This document shows, piece by piece, positions 7,226 through 64,000 of a stretch of DNA of 64,000 nt; positions within the stretch are counted from its first letter, which is position 1; each line of letters opens with the position of its first letter. A program made the translations under genes and the position numbers. Source of the DNA: Beroe forskalii (taxonomy: Eukaryota; Ctenophora; Nuda; Beroida; Beroidae); contig WFMF01000015.1 in assembly GCA_011033025.1 (NCBI GenBank), positions 1,042,813 through 1,106,812 of the forward strand, read 5' to 3'. Under the pieces are notes generated by a model. It did not search any database. It saw nothing but the letters and a program-made list of their open reading frames with translations, and was not told the DNA's origin.

Positions 7226-7936
7226 AGCCAGCATAGGTGCGTGTACTCGCCGCGCGCTTTCCTACGGAAAGGTTTGTCAGATGTACTCGGCGGACGCGCG
7301 CGCGCCCACCGAACGCGAAGGCGAAAGACACTCAGACAACGTCTGACAAAGCAAGGTCACAATGTCATGTCACATGTGCGCTCACACTCTTGCCCTAACC
7401 AGCGCCCTATTCTGCGCATCGTCATTCCTCCTCAGAATTTAATAGTCGTAGCGTAGGCCGCGCGGCGCGCGCAAGCACCTGGGCCTGATTAGTTCCTAAG
7501 CCCGCATAGGTGTGTGTACGCGCGCCGCGCAACGCAAACAGGGATATACGTGTTTAGCAACCTGATTAGGTGAACTCACGACGCGCGCTCTCAGCAGTCA
7601 ACTCTAGCTTGTCTGACGTTGTCATACCCATTATTTAAAATTTTAAATTTAAATTAGAGGGGGTCAGGCAACGCCTGACAAGCTCTAGCATAAGCCATCC
7701 TTAAGCTAAAGACGTATATTATATTATCATATCCATGATTGCGCTTCCTTTGTCGTACGATGTATGACCATTGCATTGACCCGCTGACGCCAGCCGCGAA
7801 ACGGCCAACAAAAATTAGATTACGATATGTCCAAAAACGTAAATACATTTAAAACGCAAATACGTTTTCCTAAGCCCGCATAGGTGTGCGTACGCGCGCT
7901 ACGCAACGCAGACAGGGATATACGTGTTTAGCAAAA
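7226..7936. repeat. CpG-rich block with dispersed palindromes and a 67-bp direct repeat
   Basis: A segment beginning TCCTAAGCCCGCATAGGTG occurs at 7494-7560 and again at 7868-7936, with a weaker third copy near 7226. A palindrome of the type TCAGACAACGTCTGA recurs near 7194, 7331, 7609 and 7665. The CpG and GCGC density is far above the flanks. The second direct repeat copy sits inside the first units of the 17-bp satellite. Confidence 0.6.
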
Positions 7937-9126
7937 ATACGTTTAAAACGCAAATACGTTTAAAACGCAAATACGTTTAAAACGCAAATACGTTTAAAAC
8001 GCAAATACACTACTTTTAAAACGCAAATACGTTTAAAACGCAAATACACTACGTTTAAAACGCAAATACGTTTAATTAAAACGTAAATACGTTCAAAACG
8101 TAAATACGTTCAAAACGTAAATACGTTCAAAACGTAAATACGTTCAAAACGTAAATACGTTCAAAACGTAAATACGTTCAAAACGTAAATACGTTCAAAA
8201 CGTAAATACGTTCAAAACGTAAATACGTTCAAAACGTAAATACGTTTAAAACGTAAATACGTTTAAAACGTAAATACGTTTAAAACGTAAAAACGTAAAT
8301 ACGTTGAAAACGTAAATACGTTTAAAAAGTAAATGCGTTTAAAACGTAAATACGTTTAAAAAGTAAATACGTTTAAAAAGTAAATACGTTTAAAACGTAA
8401 ATACGTTTAAAACGTAAATACGTTTAAAACGTAAATACGTTCAAAACGTAAATACGTTTAAAACGTAAATACGTTCAAAACGTAAATACGTTTAAAACGT
8501 AAATACGTTTAAAACGTAAATACGTTTAAAACGTAAATACGTTTAAAACGTAAATACGTTTTAAAAGTAAAAACGTTTAAAACGTAAATACGTTTAAAAC
8601 GTAAATACGTTCAAAACGTAAATACGTTTAAAACGTAAATACTTTCAAAACGTGAATATGTTTAAAACGTAAATACGTTTAAAACGTAAATACGTTTAAA
8701 ACATAAATACGTTTGAAACGTAAATATGTTTGAAACGTAAATACGTTTAAAACGTAAATACGTTTAAAACGTAAATACGTTTAAAACGTAAATACGTTTA
8801 AAACGTAAATACGTTTAAAACGTAAATACGTTTAAAACGTAAATACGTTTAAAACGTAAATACGTTTAAAACGTAAATACGTTTAAAACGTAAATACGTT
8901 TCAAACGTAAATACGTTTTAAACGTAAAAACGTTTAAAACGTAAATACGTTTAAAACGTAAATACGTTCAAAACGTAAATACGTTCAAAACGTAAATACG
9001 TTTAAAACGTAAATACTTTTAAAACGTGAATATGTTTAAAACGTAAATACGTTTAAAACATAAATACGTTTGAAACGTAAATATTTTTGAAACGTAAATA
9101 CGTTTAAAACGTAAATACGTTTAAAA
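7838..9126. repeat. Satellite of a 17-bp unit (GTTTAAAACGTAAATAC)
   Basis: Roughly 70 head-to-tail copies, interrupted once at 7868-7936. Three sub-blocks can be told apart: an early AAACGC variant (to about 8065), a homogeneous GTTCAAAACG variant (about 8088-8240) and the GTTTAAAACG form for the rest. The array ends about 170 bp beyond the stop codon of the PLP-lyase gene. No open frames of note. Confidence 0.95.
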
Positions 9127-9294: not shown

Positions 9295-11094
9295 TTACAG
9301 AATTGAACAATATGGATTGTTTTCATAATCATATATTGATTTTGAATTCACTGAATCAATAACTTTTGCAACCCGATTAACAGTATCATCAAATTCAACC
9401 CTGTCATTCAGCGTGTACTTTCCTTCAAAATGGTAAAAGCAATCATCGACATAATTCTCAGGATGTAAACCCGCACACAGATTTTCCAAGATCCCTTCTT
9501 GATAAACTTCTCCTAAAAGACTAAGCACGTACAACAGATCTTCTCTACTGTGCACTTCTCGAGGTATCGCAAGTCTCAGAGAGTCCATTGGGAGAGCGTT
9601 AGAGAAACAAACGTTCCCTGATTTATCAATATGACGACCTCCATGAATCGAATAGCCCAAACCACACCCTCTTATGCTCAGACACTTAATTAAAATTGCG
9701 TTGAGATACTCAGCTGGGCAGTTCTCTGTCTTGACGTTTGGAAGAACTTGGTCCGCTGCCAAATACATGGCATGTCCTCCACAGATAATGGGCATGCCAT
9801 ACATGTTCTTCAGAAACGATGAAACGTAGCAGACATCGTTTATTCGCCGAGCAACAACACTCTCATTGACGCAAAGTAGAAGCCCTGACATGATTTCTAT
9901 CATTCCATCGCCTGTCAGCCCGGAGTAAGAGTTGTACCCGTTTCCATAGTACGCGGTTGTCTGAGTTTTTATCAGCACGTCCAGTCCATGAATCTGAGCT
10001 GCACTCAGGACTTTGCTTCTGCGGTTGACGAATATTCCACCTCCAGAGTGGGAATACATCTTCTTGAAGCTCACAGTAACGACATCAGCAACTCTGACAA
10101 TATCCTTAACAATGTCTCGCAAACTTTTATCCTTGCATTCTGGATCCAGTGCTTTGATGAAACACGCGTTTTCATATATTCTGCACCCGTCGATCCAAAC
10201 CAATTTATTCTTTTCGTGCGTTTTTCTAGCGAGAAACTCAATATTTTTCAACGAAACCGGCTGCCCTCCTCCCTCATTGTCCGTTATCGTCATCAAAAGA
10301 CAAGAAAAATCGCACTCCGCATCAAACGCTGTCGTATTAATGTCTCCCATGAACGGATGTTGTGCACTGTAGTATGATTCAATACTCGGTAATGGCAACA
10401 ACTCCTTCACTGTAAGCCCATGTGCCATAATGTGACCTTTTGTTGTTCCATAAGGGCGGTTGGATAAGATCGTTGTCCCCGGAGCGAGCACACCAGCCTG
10501 AACCAAGCCGGTCAGGAGCATTTTCTCTGAGGCTCTCCCTTGGAGGGTGGGATAAAAGTTAAAATCTTCTCCGAAACAAAACGCTGCCGCTCTACGTAGG
10601 TCTCGAGTCGGAGTGGAACCGGCATACGAAAATACATCTGTGCTGGGAACTATGCCGTGGTAGGTTTCCTTGAAATTAACTTGTTCGTTTGTTAGGCTAC
10701 TTGTGCCGGAATCCGAAAGCAGGTCAAAATTCAAATATGACGCCGGTATTGTGAATGGGTTGAAGTTCTTGAGGGACAGATGATCGACGCTTTCGTTTGA
10801 AGGAACTGGAGCGAGTTTACCACGTGGCATCACCATTTTCTCACACTCAAACATAACTCCGGGTTCTCGGTACTGCCAGAAATATTTCTTGAGATCTCGC
10901 AAAGCCTGGTCGTCTCGAACACAGTCACTGCGAACCATTTGTCTTTCCACGAAATTCCAGGTCACTGTGCAAGCCTCCATTTCATTCGTTGAGTCTGCGG
11001 TGCTGGTGCCACATCGCTCACCATCGTTATCCATCGTGCCTTGCCTGTCAGTGTTGTATAGTTTAACATTAACTACAGGTAGAGGTGGGCTCAT
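9295..11094 (-). CDS. Tryptophanase / tyrosine phenol-lyase family PLP enzyme (beta-eliminating lyase)
   Basis: One uninterrupted 599-codon frame. Known members split aromatic amino acids into indole or phenol plus pyruvate and ammonia, using pyridoxal phosphate. Family landmarks appear in order: LLSDSGT (125-131), YAGS with the expected proton-donor Tyr157, PTLQGR phosphate-binding loop (182-187), TDNEGGGQP (271-279, Asn273), DGCR (Asp302, Arg305), SFKK (342-345, Lys345 the expected Schiff-base lysine) and RLAIPRE (Arg507, expected substrate-carboxylate contact). Microbial enzymes have about 460-475 residues. This protein adds about 110 N-terminal residues without a recognisable domain or signal peptide; Met21 is another possible start. 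By eye, the residue after the PLP-stacking aromatic (Tyr215) is Gly216, where tryptophanase has Asp and tyrosine phenol-lyase has Thr, so the substrate is open. The lack of introns among intron-rich genes suggests horizontal transfer or retroposition. An intact frame implies selection. Confidence 0.9.
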   Translation of the reverse strand: MSPPLPVVNVKLYNTDRQGTMDNDGERCGTSTADSTNEMEACTVTWNFVERQMVRSDCVRDDQALRDLKKYFWQYREPGVMFECEKMVMPRGKLAPVPSNESVDHLSLKNFNPFTIPASYLNFDLLSDSGTSSLTNEQVNFKETYHGIVPSTDVFSYAGSTPTRDLRRAAAFCFGEDFNFYPTLQGRASEKMLLTGLVQAGVLAPGTTILSNRPYGTTKGHIMAHGLTVKELLPLPSIESYYSAQHPFMGDINTTAFDAECDFSCLLMTITDNEGGGQPVSLKNIEFLARKTHEKNKLVWIDGCRIYENACFIKALDPECKDKSLRDIVKDIVRVADVVTVSFKKMYSHSGGGIFVNRRSKVLSAAQIHGLDVLIKTQTTAYYGNGYNSYSGLTGDGMIEIMSGLLLCVNESVVARRINDVCYVSSFLKNMYGMPIICGGHAMYLAADQVLPNVKTENCPAEYLNAILIKCLSIRGCGLGYSIHGGRHIDKSGNVCFSNALPMDSLRLAIPREVHSREDLLYVLSLLGEVYQEGILENLCAGLHPENYVDDCFYHFEGKYTLNDRVEFDDTVNRVAKVIDSVNSKSIYDYENNPYCSIL

Positions 11095-14000
11095 CAGTCA
11101 AAACCAAACCAGTTAAAAGTAGCCTGTCAAAAAGACTTGCATGGAGATAGAAAAGCCAGATACAGATACTTATCTTCAGCCTCAGGTCTTAGGCGCCTTT
11201 CAGTTTACAGGGCTCTATCTTCACTTTTTAAGTCCTTTTGACGGGCTATTTTTCGACAGAACTTTTGACTGATATGTATTTGACTGATGAGCACACAATA
11301 CACATACCAGTCATAAAATTTTTATGTTACATATTACAGTTATGATAAATTGCATCATTTTTCAAGAATGTAAGGAATGATCTGAAACAACTGATTGCTA
11401 TCCATCAAAAAAGTGCGGACAAATTTGGTGCTATAAAGTTCGGTATCAAAGTATTAAGGTTATCCGAGAGCAATTCACTAATTTCAATCTCGAGAATGTG
11501 GAAAATTGTGATATTGATTTCTCAAGAAGCTACTCCTTCATAAAATTTTATCTGGAACTAATAACATTGATTTCCTACCATTTCAGTATTCCAATATATT
11601 TCTCAGATTCAAGCAATACTAAGAATTTCATTGTTGAGTTCACAGTAAACTGAAGTCTTAACAGTGACCAACCGAAGCCCTTTCATGTTTTATACGTTGA
11701 GCGCAGTGGGAGACAGAGATTGGTCAAACAAAGCTTTCATGTGTTTATCCTCGTGATCATTGCTCACTTAAAGCTCAACTCACTTAAGCTGATCACAAAG
11801 CACTCTCCAAATGAGGGTGCACTTTTGACTATCACACAATAGCACCGAAAAATATGAATACCTCTGCTGCGTTTAAAAATATGCCAGCTATTGCAGCTCC
11901 TTCATGAAATATTATATTCATTATATAGCCAAAACTTCGTAAGGACAATAACGACTATGATCTTGGTGATTGTCCACTATATTATATAAATTTACATATA
12001 ATAACACTTCCGAAGTTATGAAATAGTTTTATTGTTGATGCCGTGAGATGGCACAATACCTTACCAAACACCTGCCTTTGTAAGTCGGTAATTCCGGAGA
12101 TCAGTGAGTTTATTATTTGTTTTCAGCTCACAAAACATCCCGTAGTGTAGTCAGGGGCAATGTTTAATATATAACGCTGGCTTTGACAAAAGCGAGGCGT
12201 TCCACTATCTTTTTCACGTGACTTTATCAATTTACCAATGTTATTGCCTTTGTCATTGCCTGTGTTTTTACAAAAAAAACATATATATATATATATTGTG
12301 TGTTTTTCTTGCTTTATGAGTTTATGTCCGTAGCACCTTTGTGTTATTCGTATAACGGAGCGCTATATGTTATACTAAACCTGTCACGTGGTGCCACATA
12401 ATATACAGCACTCCAGTCACCTGACTGCGGGTTTATATTGTGAGCGTCACGTGATCCCCCGATATAAAGCACTCTTCCATACTAAGGGCCCGTGAAGTTG
12501 CCCTGAAGAAACAGACTTCAGGCACCCTGGAACCCACCAGGTGTTCTTTATAATCTCTTGTCTCCCAGAGTATAAATAGGAAAGTATTATAGTCATAGAT
12601 ATGTTCTAATCTATATATATACGATCTAGTTATTTATATTGAAGTGGGGTATGTTTTAGTCAGCAGAATTTGATAATTAATTTATCATACCTTGTCTCCA
12701 CACTGTGCAGCTGTTGGTAGTGTAAACTATTGTTCTCATTAATTGATAGATACCACATGAGTCATGATACTGGGTCATTAATAGATTAATATTTGATTGT
12801 TGTACTGGTGTCGAGCTGTGCTTTATTTGAATCGGTGATTATAATGATAAATTGATTGGGGATAACTTATCTAAGCGAATCTATCTTATTATCTAGATCT
12901 ATCATATTAGTTATGATTTATTATCTTTCATAACATTAGCATTTGAACGTTAGTACTCTCTACTATGTTGACAAATAAATGAGTATTGATAGACGAGAAA
13001 GCGTCAAACATAAAAAGCTCTGATCAAATAAAAGCGTGCGCTGATTTATTACTTATTTAGGTGTGCATGAGTGTCAGGCAGGTGTTAGGGAACATAAAAA
13101 CTGGAACGGGAACGTGGAATCATAAATCTGAGTTATCTCTACAATCTAGCCTACAATCTTTAGCAACTAGAAAGTAAAATTGCGTTACATTCAGCATTGA
13201 GTTCACCGTGGTCCGTGACAAACTCAAAGAGCACTCGATTGTACTTTAACTTTTGAGTAAAATTTACAAAATTTAAAATCCGGCAGGAACAGCCAGTATA
13301 CACGAACTCAAGAATACAAGTACACTCTGTGTAACGCACGCAGCATTCCATACTTCCTCAATAGCGCGTTTCTCCAGAAGCGCTGACCAATCAGAGGGCA
13401 GTTTGCATTCTACCTAAAAAATCAGAGGGCAGGAAAAGCGCGCGCAACTGCGTGAGCCAAATGGTGACAATAATACTTGTTTAAGAAGACCTTTTTAGGC
13501 TGCGCGTGTGTCCTGTGATTAAAACTAATAATTTCAGTATTAAACCTAATTTGTACAATGCGTATCGTTTAATTTATCGTTTATTAGATTAATTTATCAT
13601 TTCGTCGTTCATTTGCCGTTGTTTTCAATTTAACATTTTTGAATGAGACAATGCACTTTGTGGTAATATGAGTTATTAAAAATCCCAATAAATGAAAGGC
13701 TTCTTTGACCAAACCTGGTGCTCATGGTTGGAGTCAATAACCTGTATAGACTATACCAAATAATCGTTCTCAAGAGATAGTTCATCTGATACTTCCTTAT
13801 TTCCTTGTCAACTTTCCTAATTTAGTAATACTTCACTGCTTTACAGAATAGTAGGTTGGTAGGTACACTTTCTCTTTTGGTTTTACACTCGCTGCGATGA
13901 TGAGACCAGTTCTCTACTCTTCTCACGTACAGTCTTTGTAAAATGCTACGTAAACACTACGTAAACACTATGATCTTTCATGGAATTTGAATTGTTGAAT

Positions 14001-24609: not shown

Positions 24610-27600
24610 GGGGGCCTGGAAATAAACTTCCTCGTTTGAAATATCATAAATTGCAACTTATTTTTAAAATCTTATTTCAAGTGACGTCTGTGACTGGTGA
24701 GGTAATCATGAGACCAGCTACAGCTTTTTCTGAAGGTAACTATGTTTAGTTTTCTAAGAATGTCAACTTCTTTATGTTACAGACCTCGGTCTTGTGTGCT
24801 CAGTGTCTCAGGAGCATTGTGTTTGATTAGTGTTGTGTGAGTTGCAGGGGAAGCTAAGAAGATTGCTCGAATGCACATAATATTATGGTTATACGGCCAT
24901 GCACAAAACTTAAGAAAACTCATATGTTTCATTCTTTTTAGGAATAATTATGTGGTAGAAGGTTTGAAGTATGTGATGAAAAGCGATGAGAGTGAATGAA
25001 AAGCTTTGAAAGCAAATAATTCGAGCTTTACACAGAAAAAGACTTACTTCGTTTTCTCTGTATTATTAATAGCTCGGTCACTCGAAATTTAAATTCAATA
25101 TTTTATCTTCATTTTGCTCCTTTTTCATACCAATATAATAGTGTTCTTCACCATGAAATTTTGTATATTATAATTTACTATTAAAATTATGATTATTAAG
25201 CAAAGTGCTTATAATGCATTATTTATCAGAATTACAAAATTTAAGGAGAATAAAAAAGCAAAGCAAAAGAAGCAACGTACTGCACAACGTTCGATAATAT
25301 ATGAATTCGGGTATATAGATGAGTTTTGAGTTTTGATCTCTCATATATAATGATAAAATAGTAAATAGGGCGATTATCCTATTAGAGTTGAGTAGTTATA
25401 GCTTGGCTTGTGTACTTCCATAGCAACGCGCAGCGTTTAGGATCCTCATAGGTCGGTGTACAAGCTCCGATTAGGTAGGTTGTTGGTATAGACATATCCT
25501 GATCCATGGTACCCGCAAATGCTGTATAAACGCAACTAATAAAGTAATAAACGGTCGAGAGAGTGACATCTTTATTAAAATGGCGAATTTATGACGTCAA
25601 ATCGTCTTATCATTCGTACGCGACAGACAGACAGACACATAATTATTATCATGATTTGCATCTTAGGGCAGCGGTAATTTGTCACGAATCCACCATCATA
25701 TGGCATGGCTCGAAATCGCTTGCTACCAAGTTTGGGAACGTCCTGCAGTGGGATCATCAATATAAAAATGTTTATGAAAAAACGTCGAAGCAACCATGTT
25801 TTTCCTGCGGAAATTATTTTCGTAGAGACGAGGAACTAGCATGCGTTACCCGCGTTGCCCAATGCCATGGCAATGCGTGGTGCCGTGATGCTACCATGGT
25901 GTCGCTGTGGCGTGGAAACTGTGATGGTCCTTGCGCTACCATGGTGCCTGAGTAGTATTGCTGTGGCGTTGCTGTTCTTAAAACGACAAGTATGTCGGAG
26001 TTCTAAAAATGCTGAAAAAATATATCTTAGATTGTCTATCATAAAGATACAAAATTAGAGGGAATATGATCTTAGTAAATTGGCAAGAAATAAGCTCATG
26101 CTGAGACTTAAAAAGGATGGTAGAATTCTTGAGAGTTAAGGCTCTTCGTGGGAACTGCTAATATTGCTTTATTGTAGTGCGTAATGCGATGTCAAAGCGT
26201 ATGAAATATAAGGAGTATTAACGTGTGTTCATAATGTAGTCAACGTTTCGTGTGGTTACTGGTTATGGCACTAGGAATTTGGATTCATTAATTAAAGCGA
26301 TGCGTTTTATCGATTGTTGGGACATTTATAGTTGAATGTGATGAGTTCGGGGGGAAATTTCTAATTTTTCTCAGGTGAAAACTTTTCAAGAATCTTTCAC
26401 TTAGAAAAATTTTGTTTCTCTAATTCTAAACCAACAAAATCTTAATGTTATTCGGGAAATGGATTTATCTCAAGTTTAAGTCTTTATGCAAATATTGGAA
26501 GCTCCTATTTAAATATTGCCTATAACGACCAGCGCCATTTGAGCTCTGTTGCCCGTACTTAGATATCAGAATAGTAACCATTTCTGAAAAGGGATGGCGA
26601 GCTACATTCAAAACCTGTTTAATGTTTTATTTTGTTGGCTCAAAGCTCTCATTTTATCAAAATGAACGACATTTTCATATCACCTGTTCTAAAAGGGGGA
26701 GGCGGCCGCCTGTTTCGCCTCCCCTGGCTACGCCCCTGAATACTATAACCATCGGAGATTCAGCTAACATGACTGTGGTAGTGTGATATATGATATTGAC
26801 TTCTTAAACCTTTATTATTATCCGATGCTGGAAGGATCTGTATATCAGTATATCAAAATATTATTCGAATTTCGAACGGAGTCTTTTATCGGAAGCTGCG
26901 TTGTGCTTGATTACCTTTTATCGATCGTATAGCTTACTGGATATGGCAAAAGACAATTCATCTCAGTGAGCTTGGTTTATCAACGTCTCAACTCACTTTG
27001 GTGGGTGGGGCTCATGTTTAAAGCTCCACACCTCTTCAGTCTACACACACATCTCCACAAACACACGCACAAACACACGCACAAACACACATCCCCACAA
27101 ACACACTCCCTCCTTCTTCTGACTAAAAGGACTCAGCCGCACCAAGTGATGTGCGCTCGTGGCGCTCTTCTCGCTCGATACCGCACGGGCCGCGCGCAAT
27201 TTCCAAGCATCGCATCCCATGTTGTGGAGCTGCCACTCGGCCAATCAGGAGCGAGGATCGGTGAACTAGCCAATGGGCTGCGGTGTTGAGTTCGCTGAGA
27301 CATAACATGTAGACCAGTGTCGTTCAGAGGTGCCGTTTTCCATGTTGAAAACGCCGTATTGATGGTATGATCCCCGTGATATGTCACGTGACTCACCGAG
27401 TAATCCCAAGCTTTGTACTGTTATAACGCAGAAAAGTGATTGTGTGTGAGCGTTTGTGTGTTTGTGTGTGTGCTCTGTGTGGTGTGTGTACGTGTGTGTG
27501 TGACTCACTTCTGATAAGTAAAATTTATTTAGTTTATTATTTATAATCCAATTGTTTGTTTACTCATTCCATGTAATTAAGGGTACTTATTCCTTACTGT

Positions 27601-49043: not shown

Positions 49044-62488
<13,445 letters not shown>

Positions 62489-64000
62489 GTCTCAAACAGT
62501 AGGTATCATAGATCATGAAGATATAATTTCCAATCCCAGAAAAAATTTCAATTTTGGGTGCTTTCCCTACTGAAAATTAAAAGCACAATCCCTTATGAGG
62601 ATGCTTTCAGTTTGATCATCTGTACATTTGAATTTGTTTGTTAAAACATGGGACAAAGATTCCAGATAAGATTCCCTGCCTGGGCCTGCCATTCCTACTG
62701 AGCTACAGGTGAATGATACCTAGGTATCTCAAGCCTTTGCAGCCACATGGATCACTCAGTTGAGCATAAAAGAATCTGTGCAGGTGGGTTGAATGAGGAG
62801 CAGTCAATTGCAGTAAAGTCTTGGACAAATAAAGTATGGATTACACTTCCCTTATTTCCCTCTGCATACTCAACACATATTTTTCTATCCCCTTTTCTCA
62901 CCATGAGTCATCAATGATGGGTGTTGCCATTGACAGTATATAATATGTTTGGCAACTTAAGCATGACTGGGAGAGAGACTTGTTCCATTCCTTATAATGA
63001 GGGTGTAATTTCAAATTACCCCAGCATTGAGTCTGATTATGGTCCTGCCTGTTTGTTTGTGCAGTTTATCCGATAGGTTAACAAAGCAAAGAGAGCTTTG
63101 TTATCCAGCTCATAAATTAATATTTTGGTTAAAAAAAGAGGTACAATAAACTTCCCATTGTTATGTTTCTGAATAATATTTAGAAATTTACAACTGAGCT
63201 ATAATTACACTACTCTATAGGCACACACAGTATTTGACGTCATATGTCAGGATCTTGTCACTCCAACTACACATCCCTTATTGTTTTCTTTAGGCCTGAC
63301 ACCACCCCTTTTCTTTTCTTTGTTTATTGTAAGCCCAGGCATGATTTTTATGAGTACCAACATCATCCCTGTTCTACTTTTTTCCTCAATTAATTAGTTT
63401 CTTCGCACTTAGGTCTCTGATTTGTATCCAGAACTTTTTGAAACTGTCAAAAATCTCTGAAGAGAGTCAATTATAGAAATTTATATTGGTTGAGTAAGCA
63501 CCAAACATTCATAATGAATGGTGTATTGCAATAAGGTGGTCTCCTGGTTCCATGTTGATGGAATGGACTGATCAAATGAAAAACATGCACAATACACTTT
63601 TACAGTGACATCCACACAAAACATCATGTTCTGGTATTTGTGTGCGTTTTTCATCTGAACAATTATTTGATCAATGTGGAATGAGGCAGATGCCTAACAA
63701 ATATCATAATCCAAGGTAAAAATATTTCAAAAAGTTTGAAGTTTATCATCTTTTATAAATATTAAATAAGATCATAGAACATGCAGTAGCACTGATAAAA
63801 AGCCCCAATAATAAATTGTTGAAATAATAAATATTCAAAAATAGGGTCAGTCTTTCATATCTTTGAAAGTGCATATATTTTTACTTAAATTGCTCAAAAC
63901 AATTTTTATCTAAAATCGTTCATTAACAATCAATAATATCTCATAGCGTTGATGAAATCAGAAATGTGTCCACTGTCCAGTCCTGATCTCTTATCACTAC
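62489..64000. other. Upstream region of the zinc-finger gene, no gene seen
   Basis: AT-rich with no supported frames. It should contain the 5' UTR and promoter of the minus-strand zinc-finger gene. I recognised no specific promoter element. Confidence 0.45.

What the first reader, a model, noticed from the sequence alone, without database searches (positions are those of the whole stretch)
9295..11094. Intronless tryptophanase-family lyase in an animal genome
The 599-codon frame keeps every catalytic landmark of the beta-eliminating lyase family (Tyr157, Gln185-Gly186-Arg187, Asn273, Asp302, Arg305, Lys345, Arg507), yet animals are not known to rely on this family for tryptophan or tyrosine breakdown. 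It has no introns among intron-dense genes and is flanked by animal-type repeats, so contamination is unlikely. Horizontal transfer is the simplest reading. Some acorn worms and polychaetes accumulate halogenated indoles or phenols; a host enzyme releasing indole or phenol would be an attractive source, but that link is speculation.
Basis: partly seen in the sequence, partly recalled or inferred. Interest (0 to 1): 0.88.

Follow-up and report, generated by a model that had tools for sequence, protein, structure and literature searches.

The report
Archaeal-type tryptophanase relative in animal
An animal genome carries intronless genes for a tryptophan-splitting type of enzyme whose closest named prokaryotic kin are in tiny archaea; the copy found here has lost the residue needed to split tryptophan and ends in what looks like a lipid-anchor signal, so it probably does a different job.

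Summary
The open frame is real: 599 codons on the minus strand, no intron, no stop. It is a PLP lyase of Pfam PF01212, but not an ordinary tryptophanase. A search of about 5.8 billion proteins found 23 close relatives, then a sharp drop in score. They include a ribbon worm (Lineus) and Woesearchaeota and Micrarchaeota MAGs; most are unnamed. Trees put the animal rows among archaeal ones, so horizontal transfer is well supported. The host genome (216 Mb) holds a second, diverged, intronless paralogue beside a multi-exon gene, so contamination is unlikely.

It is Asp in 22 of 22 relatives with a letter there and in 181 of 181 tryptophanase-like proteins in hand. A published D133A mutant was inactive on tryptophan. 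Indole release is therefore unlikely; the paralogue keeps the Asp. Both paralogues and their two nearest relatives end in CaaX-type boxes, which a strict pattern found in 0 of 202 other family proteins. Animal tryptophanases are in print; this is a new variant.

The parts
9295..11094 (-). Single-exon frame, 599 aa plus stop: PF01212 lyase of the archaeal-type tryptophanase subfamily
10810..11094 (-). N-terminal extension, residues 1-95 (residue 96 aligns with residue 18 of Proteus tryptophanase); its motif VRDDQALRDLKKYFWQYREPG aligns with archaeal members (VRSSKSIDAVRTYFSQGRKFS in the Woesearchaeota row P0003)
   Evidence: HMMER alignments; alignment A1
10624..10626 (-). Tyr157, equivalent of Tyr72 (Proteus), which comes from the neighbouring subunit
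   Evidence: role from PMC11301627
10447..10452 (-). Codons 215-216, TAT GGA = Tyr-Gly, where 22 of 22 relatives with letters and 181 of 181 tryptophanase-like proteins in hand have Phe-Asp (Phe132-Asp133 of Proteus TIL)
10060..10062 (-). Lys345, Schiff-base lysine (Lys266 of Proteus), in the subfamily motif KK[MI]Y
9427..9432 (-). His555-Phe556, equivalents of His458-Phe459 (Proteus)
9298..9309 (-). C-terminal CSIL, a CaaX-type prenylation box
11085..11296 (.). Inverted repeat (arms 11085-11120 and 11261-11296, 83% complementary) overlapping the first codons; one match (itself) in the genome search
7935..9126 (.). 17-bp tandem array, about 70 copies, 3' of the gene

Best explanation
This is one of two old paralogues of an archaeal-type tryptophan indole-lyase that an animal lineage gained by horizontal transfer and kept without introns. 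Shown: family, close kinship with DPANN-archaeal proteins, paralogues in one genome, long retention of an intact frame, loss of the ring-binding Asp, a shared C-terminal CaaX-type box. Inferred: the enzyme binds PLP on Lys345, removes the alpha proton and beta-eliminates as its relatives do, but it no longer cleaves tryptophan; it acts on beta-substituted amino acids with a better leaving group (S-alkyl or S-aryl cysteines, activated serine) giving pyruvate and ammonia, and it is held at a membrane by a prenyl group. The sister copy, which keeps the Asp and the closing His, is the likelier indole producer.
For: Close-kin set of 23 proteins, then a drop from 301 to 170 bits and from 535 to 281 bits in the profile search. 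Trees: window + P0001 + P0002 100/100; with P0003 (Woesearchaeota) and the Lineus group 99/94 and 97/95; with P0005 added 99/97 and 100/98; with paralogue C234 included 96/94 and 98/96. Micrarchaeota locus L003 carries RadA over the archaeal model's cut-off about 1.2 kb upstream, and L001 an adjacent AspRS frame. Four places in the host genome; C234 is open over 622 codons, keeps FDTT and ends CSIM, beside an EF-G gene in at least four frames. Phe-Asp lost only in the window copy. D133A in the Proteus enzyme: inactive on L-Trp, active with good leaving groups (PMC11301627 passages); Asp137 ionisation does not show in the reaction with L-serine (PMC6826157 passages). CaaX-type box in 4 of 4 of the quartet; 0 of 202 others by a strict pattern, 1 of 202 (P0008, CTDT) with any Cys at -4. 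Intact frame against a simulated neutral mean of 7-20 stops for 10-35% substitution; codon positions differ by 34%, 25% and 64% from C234.
Against: No expression, enzyme or prenylation data. Only P0008 of the presumed animal relatives bears a name; P0001, P0002, P0004, P0006, P0007, P0009 are unnamed, as are P0005 and P0010 that help to set the donor, so within the nested group the donor reading leans on P0003 alone. The root rests on a distant outgroup (branch about 1.3-2.4 changes per site) and the basal forks are weak. One versus two transfers is not resolved (AU p 0.486 and 0.232 for one clade). A CaaX-like ending can occur without prenylation. The substrate is a guess from mutants of distant enzymes.
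Confidence: 0.55

Rival explanations
1. The window copy is an active tryptophanase that supplies indole.
For: At the five positions that separate indole- from phenol-lyases (PMC5805759 passages) it has Gly, Tyr, Cys, Leu, His: the His is the tryptophanase residue, Tyr, Cys and Leu occur among the tryptophanase-like proteins compared (4, 105 and 4 of 181), and none is the phenol-lyase residue.
Against: Asp137/133 is Gly with Phe132 also changed; D133A was inactive on L-Trp. No Trp_halogenase match in the genome.
Confidence: 0.12
2. It is a catalytically weak partner: it forms mixed dimers with the Asp-bearing paralogue, lends its Tyr157 to the partner's active site and tunes or anchors that enzyme.
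For: The catalytic Tyr comes from the neighbouring subunit (PMC11301627) and is kept; both paralogues lie in one genome and both have CaaX-type ends.
Against: The other PLP-chemistry residues checked are intact too, which a mere partner would not need.
Confidence: 0.2
3. It is a recent, decaying duplicate without function.
For: It has the most private changes at otherwise invariant sites, 6 (next P0019 with 5) (rows with close kin in the set cannot score high); two further copies in the genome have broken frames.
Against: 57% protein identity to its paralogue with no stop in 599 codons; a mean of 7-20 stops in neutral simulations; C-terminal box kept.
Confidence: 0.08
4. Prokaryotic contamination or misassembly.
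For: Archaeal-type sequence, no intron.
Against: 1.1-Mb contig with a LINE-type endonuclease frame, zinc-finger and protease exons; a second locus beside multi-exon EF-G; an annotated nemertean relative; strict CaaX ends in none of the other 202 family proteins.
Confidence: 0.04

Closest known systems
Tryptophan indole-lyase (tryptophanase, EC 4.1.99.1), e.g. Proteus vulgaris 1ax4, E. coli TnaA
   Same: Pfam family, PLP lysine, and equivalents of Tyr72, Arg101, Asn194, Asp223, Arg226, Arg414, His458-Phe459 (numbering of Arg226 and Arg414 counted on the 1ax4 row)
   Different: N-terminus about 80 residues longer; 28-35% identity to the tryptophanase-like proteins listed; KK[MI]Y motif instead of KKD; CaaX-type end; ring-binding Asp lost in this copy; below NCBIfam cut-offs (238.1 against 285 bits for the subfamily model)
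Tyrosine phenol-lyase (EC 4.1.99.2)
   Same: Pfam family and PLP chemistry
   Different: The phenol-lyase residues Thr124, Met288, Met379, Arg381, Phe448 are Gly, Tyr, Cys, Leu, His here
DPANN-archaeal 'beta-eliminating lyase-related' proteins (Woesearchaeota P0003, P0014; Micrarchaeota P0019/L001, L002, L003)
   Same: Whole length including the N-terminal extension, KK[MI]Y motif, up to 48% identity
   Different: Those that cover the site keep Phe-Asp, and they lack the CaaX-type end
Animal 'tryptophanase-like' of Lineus longissimus (P0008)
   Same: Same subfamily, 49% identity
   Different: Keeps Phe-Asp; ends CTDT, not a standard CaaX box
Animal and protist tryptophanases already reported (PMC8537960: octopus, corals, anemones, Saccoglossus, Limulus, Folsomia, Priapulus, Drosophila; PMC8448343: Blastocystis, described as making tryptophan from indole)
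   Same: Tryptophanases in eukaryotes
   Different: I had none of those sequences; two other animal proteins that I could compare (Bradysia P0124, Tachypleus P0183) fall with ordinary tryptophanases, not in this subfamily

Membership tests
Beta-eliminating lyase family PF01212 | Score over Pfam cut-off | tested here: met
   82.3 bits against 27
Tryptophan indole-lyase | PLP lysine, Tyr72*, Arg101, Asn194, Asp223, Arg226, Arg414 | tested here: met
Tryptophan indole-lyase | Ring-binding Asp133/137 | tested here: not met
   Gly216; Asp in 22 of 22 relatives with a letter and 181 of 181 tryptophanase-like proteins in hand
Tryptophan indole-lyase | His458/463 of the closing lid | tested here: met
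   His555
Tryptophan indole-lyase | NCBIfam model cut-offs | tested here: not met
   238.1/285, 155.7/825.8, 167/750 bits
Tryptophan indole-lyase | Potassium-binding Glu before the catalytic Tyr (role recalled) | tested here: inconclusive
   Phe155 opposite Glu in the HMMER alignments; my larger alignment has gaps there
Tryptophan indole-lyase | Release of indole from L-Trp | not testable with these tools
   needs enzyme assay
Tyrosine phenol-lyase | Thr124 and Arg381 | tested here: not met
   Gly216 and Leu479
Archaeal-type (DPANN-like) tryptophanase subfamily | Grouping in trees, KK[MI]Y motif, N-terminal extension | tested here: met
Prenylated (CaaX) proteins | C-a-a-X at the very C-terminus | tested here: met
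   CSIL, of one type in 4 of 4 of the quartet
Prenylated (CaaX) proteins | Lipid actually attached | not testable with these tools
   needs labelling or mass spectrometry

The most novel reading that the evidence does not exclude
A gene of DPANN-archaeal origin was taken up by an animal lineage, duplicated, given a prenyl anchor, and one copy was turned from a tryptophanase into a membrane-bound PLP lyase with a new substrate.
Probability: 0.3. Interest if true: 0.8.

Novelty: new variant of a known kind. Interest (0 to 1): 0.6.

Why it matters
Transfers from archaea to animals are seldom claimed (recalled); the Mnemiopsis survey of which I read passages reports none (PMC6005172). Here donor-type proteins, two paralogues and a clear active-site change can be compared, so the path from acquired enzyme to new function can be tested at the bench. 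The CaaX box would be a eukaryotic targeting signal added to a prokaryotic enzyme.

Tried and rejected
Virus as carrier: one scan of viral contigs with two peptide patterns gave 19 loci, 27-34% identical in their best segment, none at close-kin level. Transposon (MITE) origin of the hairpin at the start codon: not supported, one match in the genome search (that search skips very common words). Halogenated-indole pathway: no Trp_halogenase match in the genome. First scan of genome contigs with the single protein gave no relative; the alignment gave three loci. Six of nine Micrarchaeota matches turned out to be ordinary KKD-type tryptophanases. Naming the host by a LINE-like ORF gave four hits without names. 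Nuclear-receptor zinc fingers: none found, but the tool warned that nothing rang in its controls either. A suspected loss of the potassium-binding Glu rests on pairwise HMMER alignments alone.

Full report
What is there. The frame runs from 11094 to 9295 on the minus strand, 599 aa, ATG to TAA. The stop-to-stop frame is 9295..11097, so an in-frame stop lies two codons upstream of the ATG. It matches PF01212 well over cut-off. NCBIfam tryptophanase and phenol-lyase models match strongly but below their cut-offs. The best PDB matches are tryptophanases and tyrosine phenol-lyases, at up to 135 bits.

Kin. The single-sequence search scored 8000 candidates (a cap) and listed the best 120 of 2099 matches. 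P0001 to P0023 score 749 to 301 bits (39-61% identity), the next 170 bits. With the 19-row alignment A1 the same 23 lead, with a fall from 535 to 281 bits (120 of 1707 listed). Named members: Lineus longissimus (P0008), two Woesearchaeota MAG proteins (P0003, longest contig 620 kb, and P0014), one Micrarchaeota MAG protein (P0019); a genome scan added Micrarchaeota loci L001 (contig of the same length as that of P0019), L002 (partial gene) and L003. The remaining members are unnamed and need not all be archaeal. In L003 a RadA gene over the archaeal model's cut-off lies about 1.2 kb upstream, and in L001 an aspartyl-tRNA synthetase frame (366 bits against 353 for one model, 364 against 368.4 for the non-discriminating one) is adjacent; the neighbours of L002 were not tested. 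Of 301 genomes searched in the phylum of L001, 9 match at E 1e-60 or better; 3 (those already known) are of this subfamily and 6 carry the ordinary KKD motif. Woesearchaeota genomes could not be sampled.

Trees. Four maximum-likelihood trees were built with different row sets. One search held all 23 relatives and L003; the later ones left out L003 (a long branch) and the shorter rows P0009, P0012, P0022, P0023, and the last also P0017; L002 and L042 were never used. In all four the subfamily is one side of a branch at 100/100. Window, P0001 and P0002 (and C234 when included) group at 100/100. With P0003 and the Lineus group (P0004, P0006, P0007, P0008, also P0009) they form a set at 99/94, 97/95, 96/94 and 90/94; P0005 and then P0010 join next. 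The order inside is weak: joins the two animal-type groups at 70/3, the other three trees join P0003 to the window group at 82/38, 91/83 and 86/80. Holding all presumed animal rows together is not rejected (AU p 0.486; 0.232). So one transfer or two cannot be told, and a transfer from a eukaryote into the P0003 lineage is not excluded. The outgroup is far away, basal forks are weakly supported, and some rows have odd composition (P0010, P0015, P0018, P0021 among them). Because Micrarchaeota and the other Woesearchaeota row lie outside the set, an archaeal-type donor is the simplest reading. Two other animal proteins, of Bradysia and Tachypleus, fall with ordinary tryptophanases, which suggests that animals gained this family more than once.

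The host. The window is the last 64 kb of a 1,106,812-base contig of a 216-Mb assembly. The genome gave 104 homeodomain matches; two that I compared with solved structures are closest to LIM-class (Lhx4) and Paired-class (Aristaless) homeodomains, classes known only from animals (recalled). In 25 of the 30 loci fetched I could read the recognition helix, and none looked like a Hox gene by eye; zf-C4 was not found (controls silent). This hints at a sponge or comb jelly but does not show it. The protein search gave seven matches at four places: the window gene; C234, open over 622 codons and 59% identical; C391 and C411 with broken frames. C391 and C411 are about 94% identical to C234 in DNA. 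The family search found no place beyond these (three of the four were over threshold, exon-split genes may be missed). Next to C234 is an elongation factor G gene in at least four separate frames. C234 is 70% identical to P0001 and 65% to P0002; in the tree the window copy branches outside these three (97/89), so the duplication seems older than the split of those species.

Active site. Residues come from an alignment of 24 subfamily and 181 other family proteins; roles from passages of PMC11301627, PMC5805759 and PMC6826157. The 181 are the other high-scoring hits; true phenol-lyases, which carry Thr at the Asp site (PMC5805759), are not recognisable among them, so the Asp is invariant in this sample, not in the whole family. 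The PLP and carboxylate residues checked are kept. At the five positions that separate indole- from phenol-lyases the window has Gly216, Tyr387, Cys477, Leu479, His555: none is the phenol-lyase residue, the His is that of tryptophanase, and Tyr, Cys and Leu occur in 4, 105 and 4 of the 181. Asp133/137 is replaced by Gly216 and Phe132 by Tyr215. Codons are TAT GGA: from an Asp codon two base changes are needed, from Phe at least one, so a single sequencing error cannot explain it. Private changes at sites otherwise invariant in the subfamily: six in the window copy (F215Y, D216G, T233L, G274E, Y515H, G552C), five in P0019, four each in P0008 and P0021, fewer or none in the rest (rows with close kin in the set cannot score high; C234 was not in it). 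Four of the six lie at or near active-site residues (215, 216, 274 beside Asn273, 552 near His555). In Proteus the D133A mutant was inactive on L-Trp but kept activity with good leaving groups (PMC11301627). The inference is loss of tryptophanase activity and a shift of substrate.

Is it still a gene? Window and C234 share 57% of 580 aligned residues; bases differ by 34%, 25% and 64% at codon positions one, two and three; dN is 0.38 and dS could not be computed (saturated). Random change of 10-35% of sites gave 7 to 20 stops on average. The frame has none. Selection has kept it, unless it lost function very recently.

C-terminus. From the common YHF motif on, the tails are 46, 59 and 37 residues long in window, P0001 and P0002 and differ in sequence, yet they end in CSIL, CSIL, CTLL; C234 and the two broken copies end CSIM. 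A strict CaaX pattern is found in 0 of 202 other family proteins in hand, any Cys at -4 in 1 of 202 (P0008, CTDT); Cys is 0.7% of their last 30 residues. Final Leu favours geranylgeranyl and final Met farnesyl transfer (recalled rule). This is the best sign that P0001 and P0002 are eukaryotic and that the enzyme was fitted to a eukaryotic cell.

Literature. PMC8537960 (outline with abstract, passages, and parts 1-2 of 3 of section 3.3) lists tnaA records from octopus, corals, anemones, an acorn worm, Limulus, Folsomia, Priapulus and Drosophila. PMC8448343 (passages) reports a Blastocystis enzyme that makes tryptophan. PMC4962025 (passages) reports a tryptophanase transcript in the mollusc Dicathais orbita. 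[quoted passage not shown] that paper is not held, so its results are unknown to me here and it may already treat members of this subfamily. PMC6005172 (passages) found no transfer from archaea in Mnemiopsis. In the listings of my ten paper searches (at most 20 rows seen of each) I saw no report of an archaeal-type or prenylated animal member; they cover open-licence papers only.

Verdict. A real, intact, apparently horizontally acquired animal gene of a rare archaeal-type tryptophanase subfamily; ordinary in family, unusual in origin, C-terminus and active site. It should not be filed as a working tryptophanase.

Noticed in passing
G000 C234:38285-39898, C391:112940-114550, C411:79333-80701 (L024, L025, L026): Three further copies of the family in the host genome; C234 intact with Phe-Asp kept, the other two with broken frames.
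   Followed up: partly
L030 4613-4984 (-): Short cysteine-rich frame with a signal-peptide-like start near the C234 paralogue, resembling a macin-type peptide by eye (recalled); no Pfam match.
   Followed up: no
window 11085-11296: Inverted repeat with 36-nt arms, one of which overlaps the start codon of the lyase; one match in the genome search.
   Followed up: yes
window 25551-25955 (+): Frame with a weak match to an OTT_1508-like deaminase domain, below Pfam cut-off.
   Followed up: no
window 56938-61433 (+): Four long frames in a row that look like ORF1, endonuclease and reverse transcriptase of a LINE; only the endonuclease frame was tested.
   Followed up: no
window 56001-64000: CpG observed/expected is 0.17 and 0.11 in these two 4-kb blocks, against 0.44-1.66 in the other fourteen; perhaps methylation of the LINE.
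   Followed up: no
L003 7508-8518 (+): Diphosphomevalonate decarboxylase directly downstream of the archaeal lyase gene.
   Followed up: no
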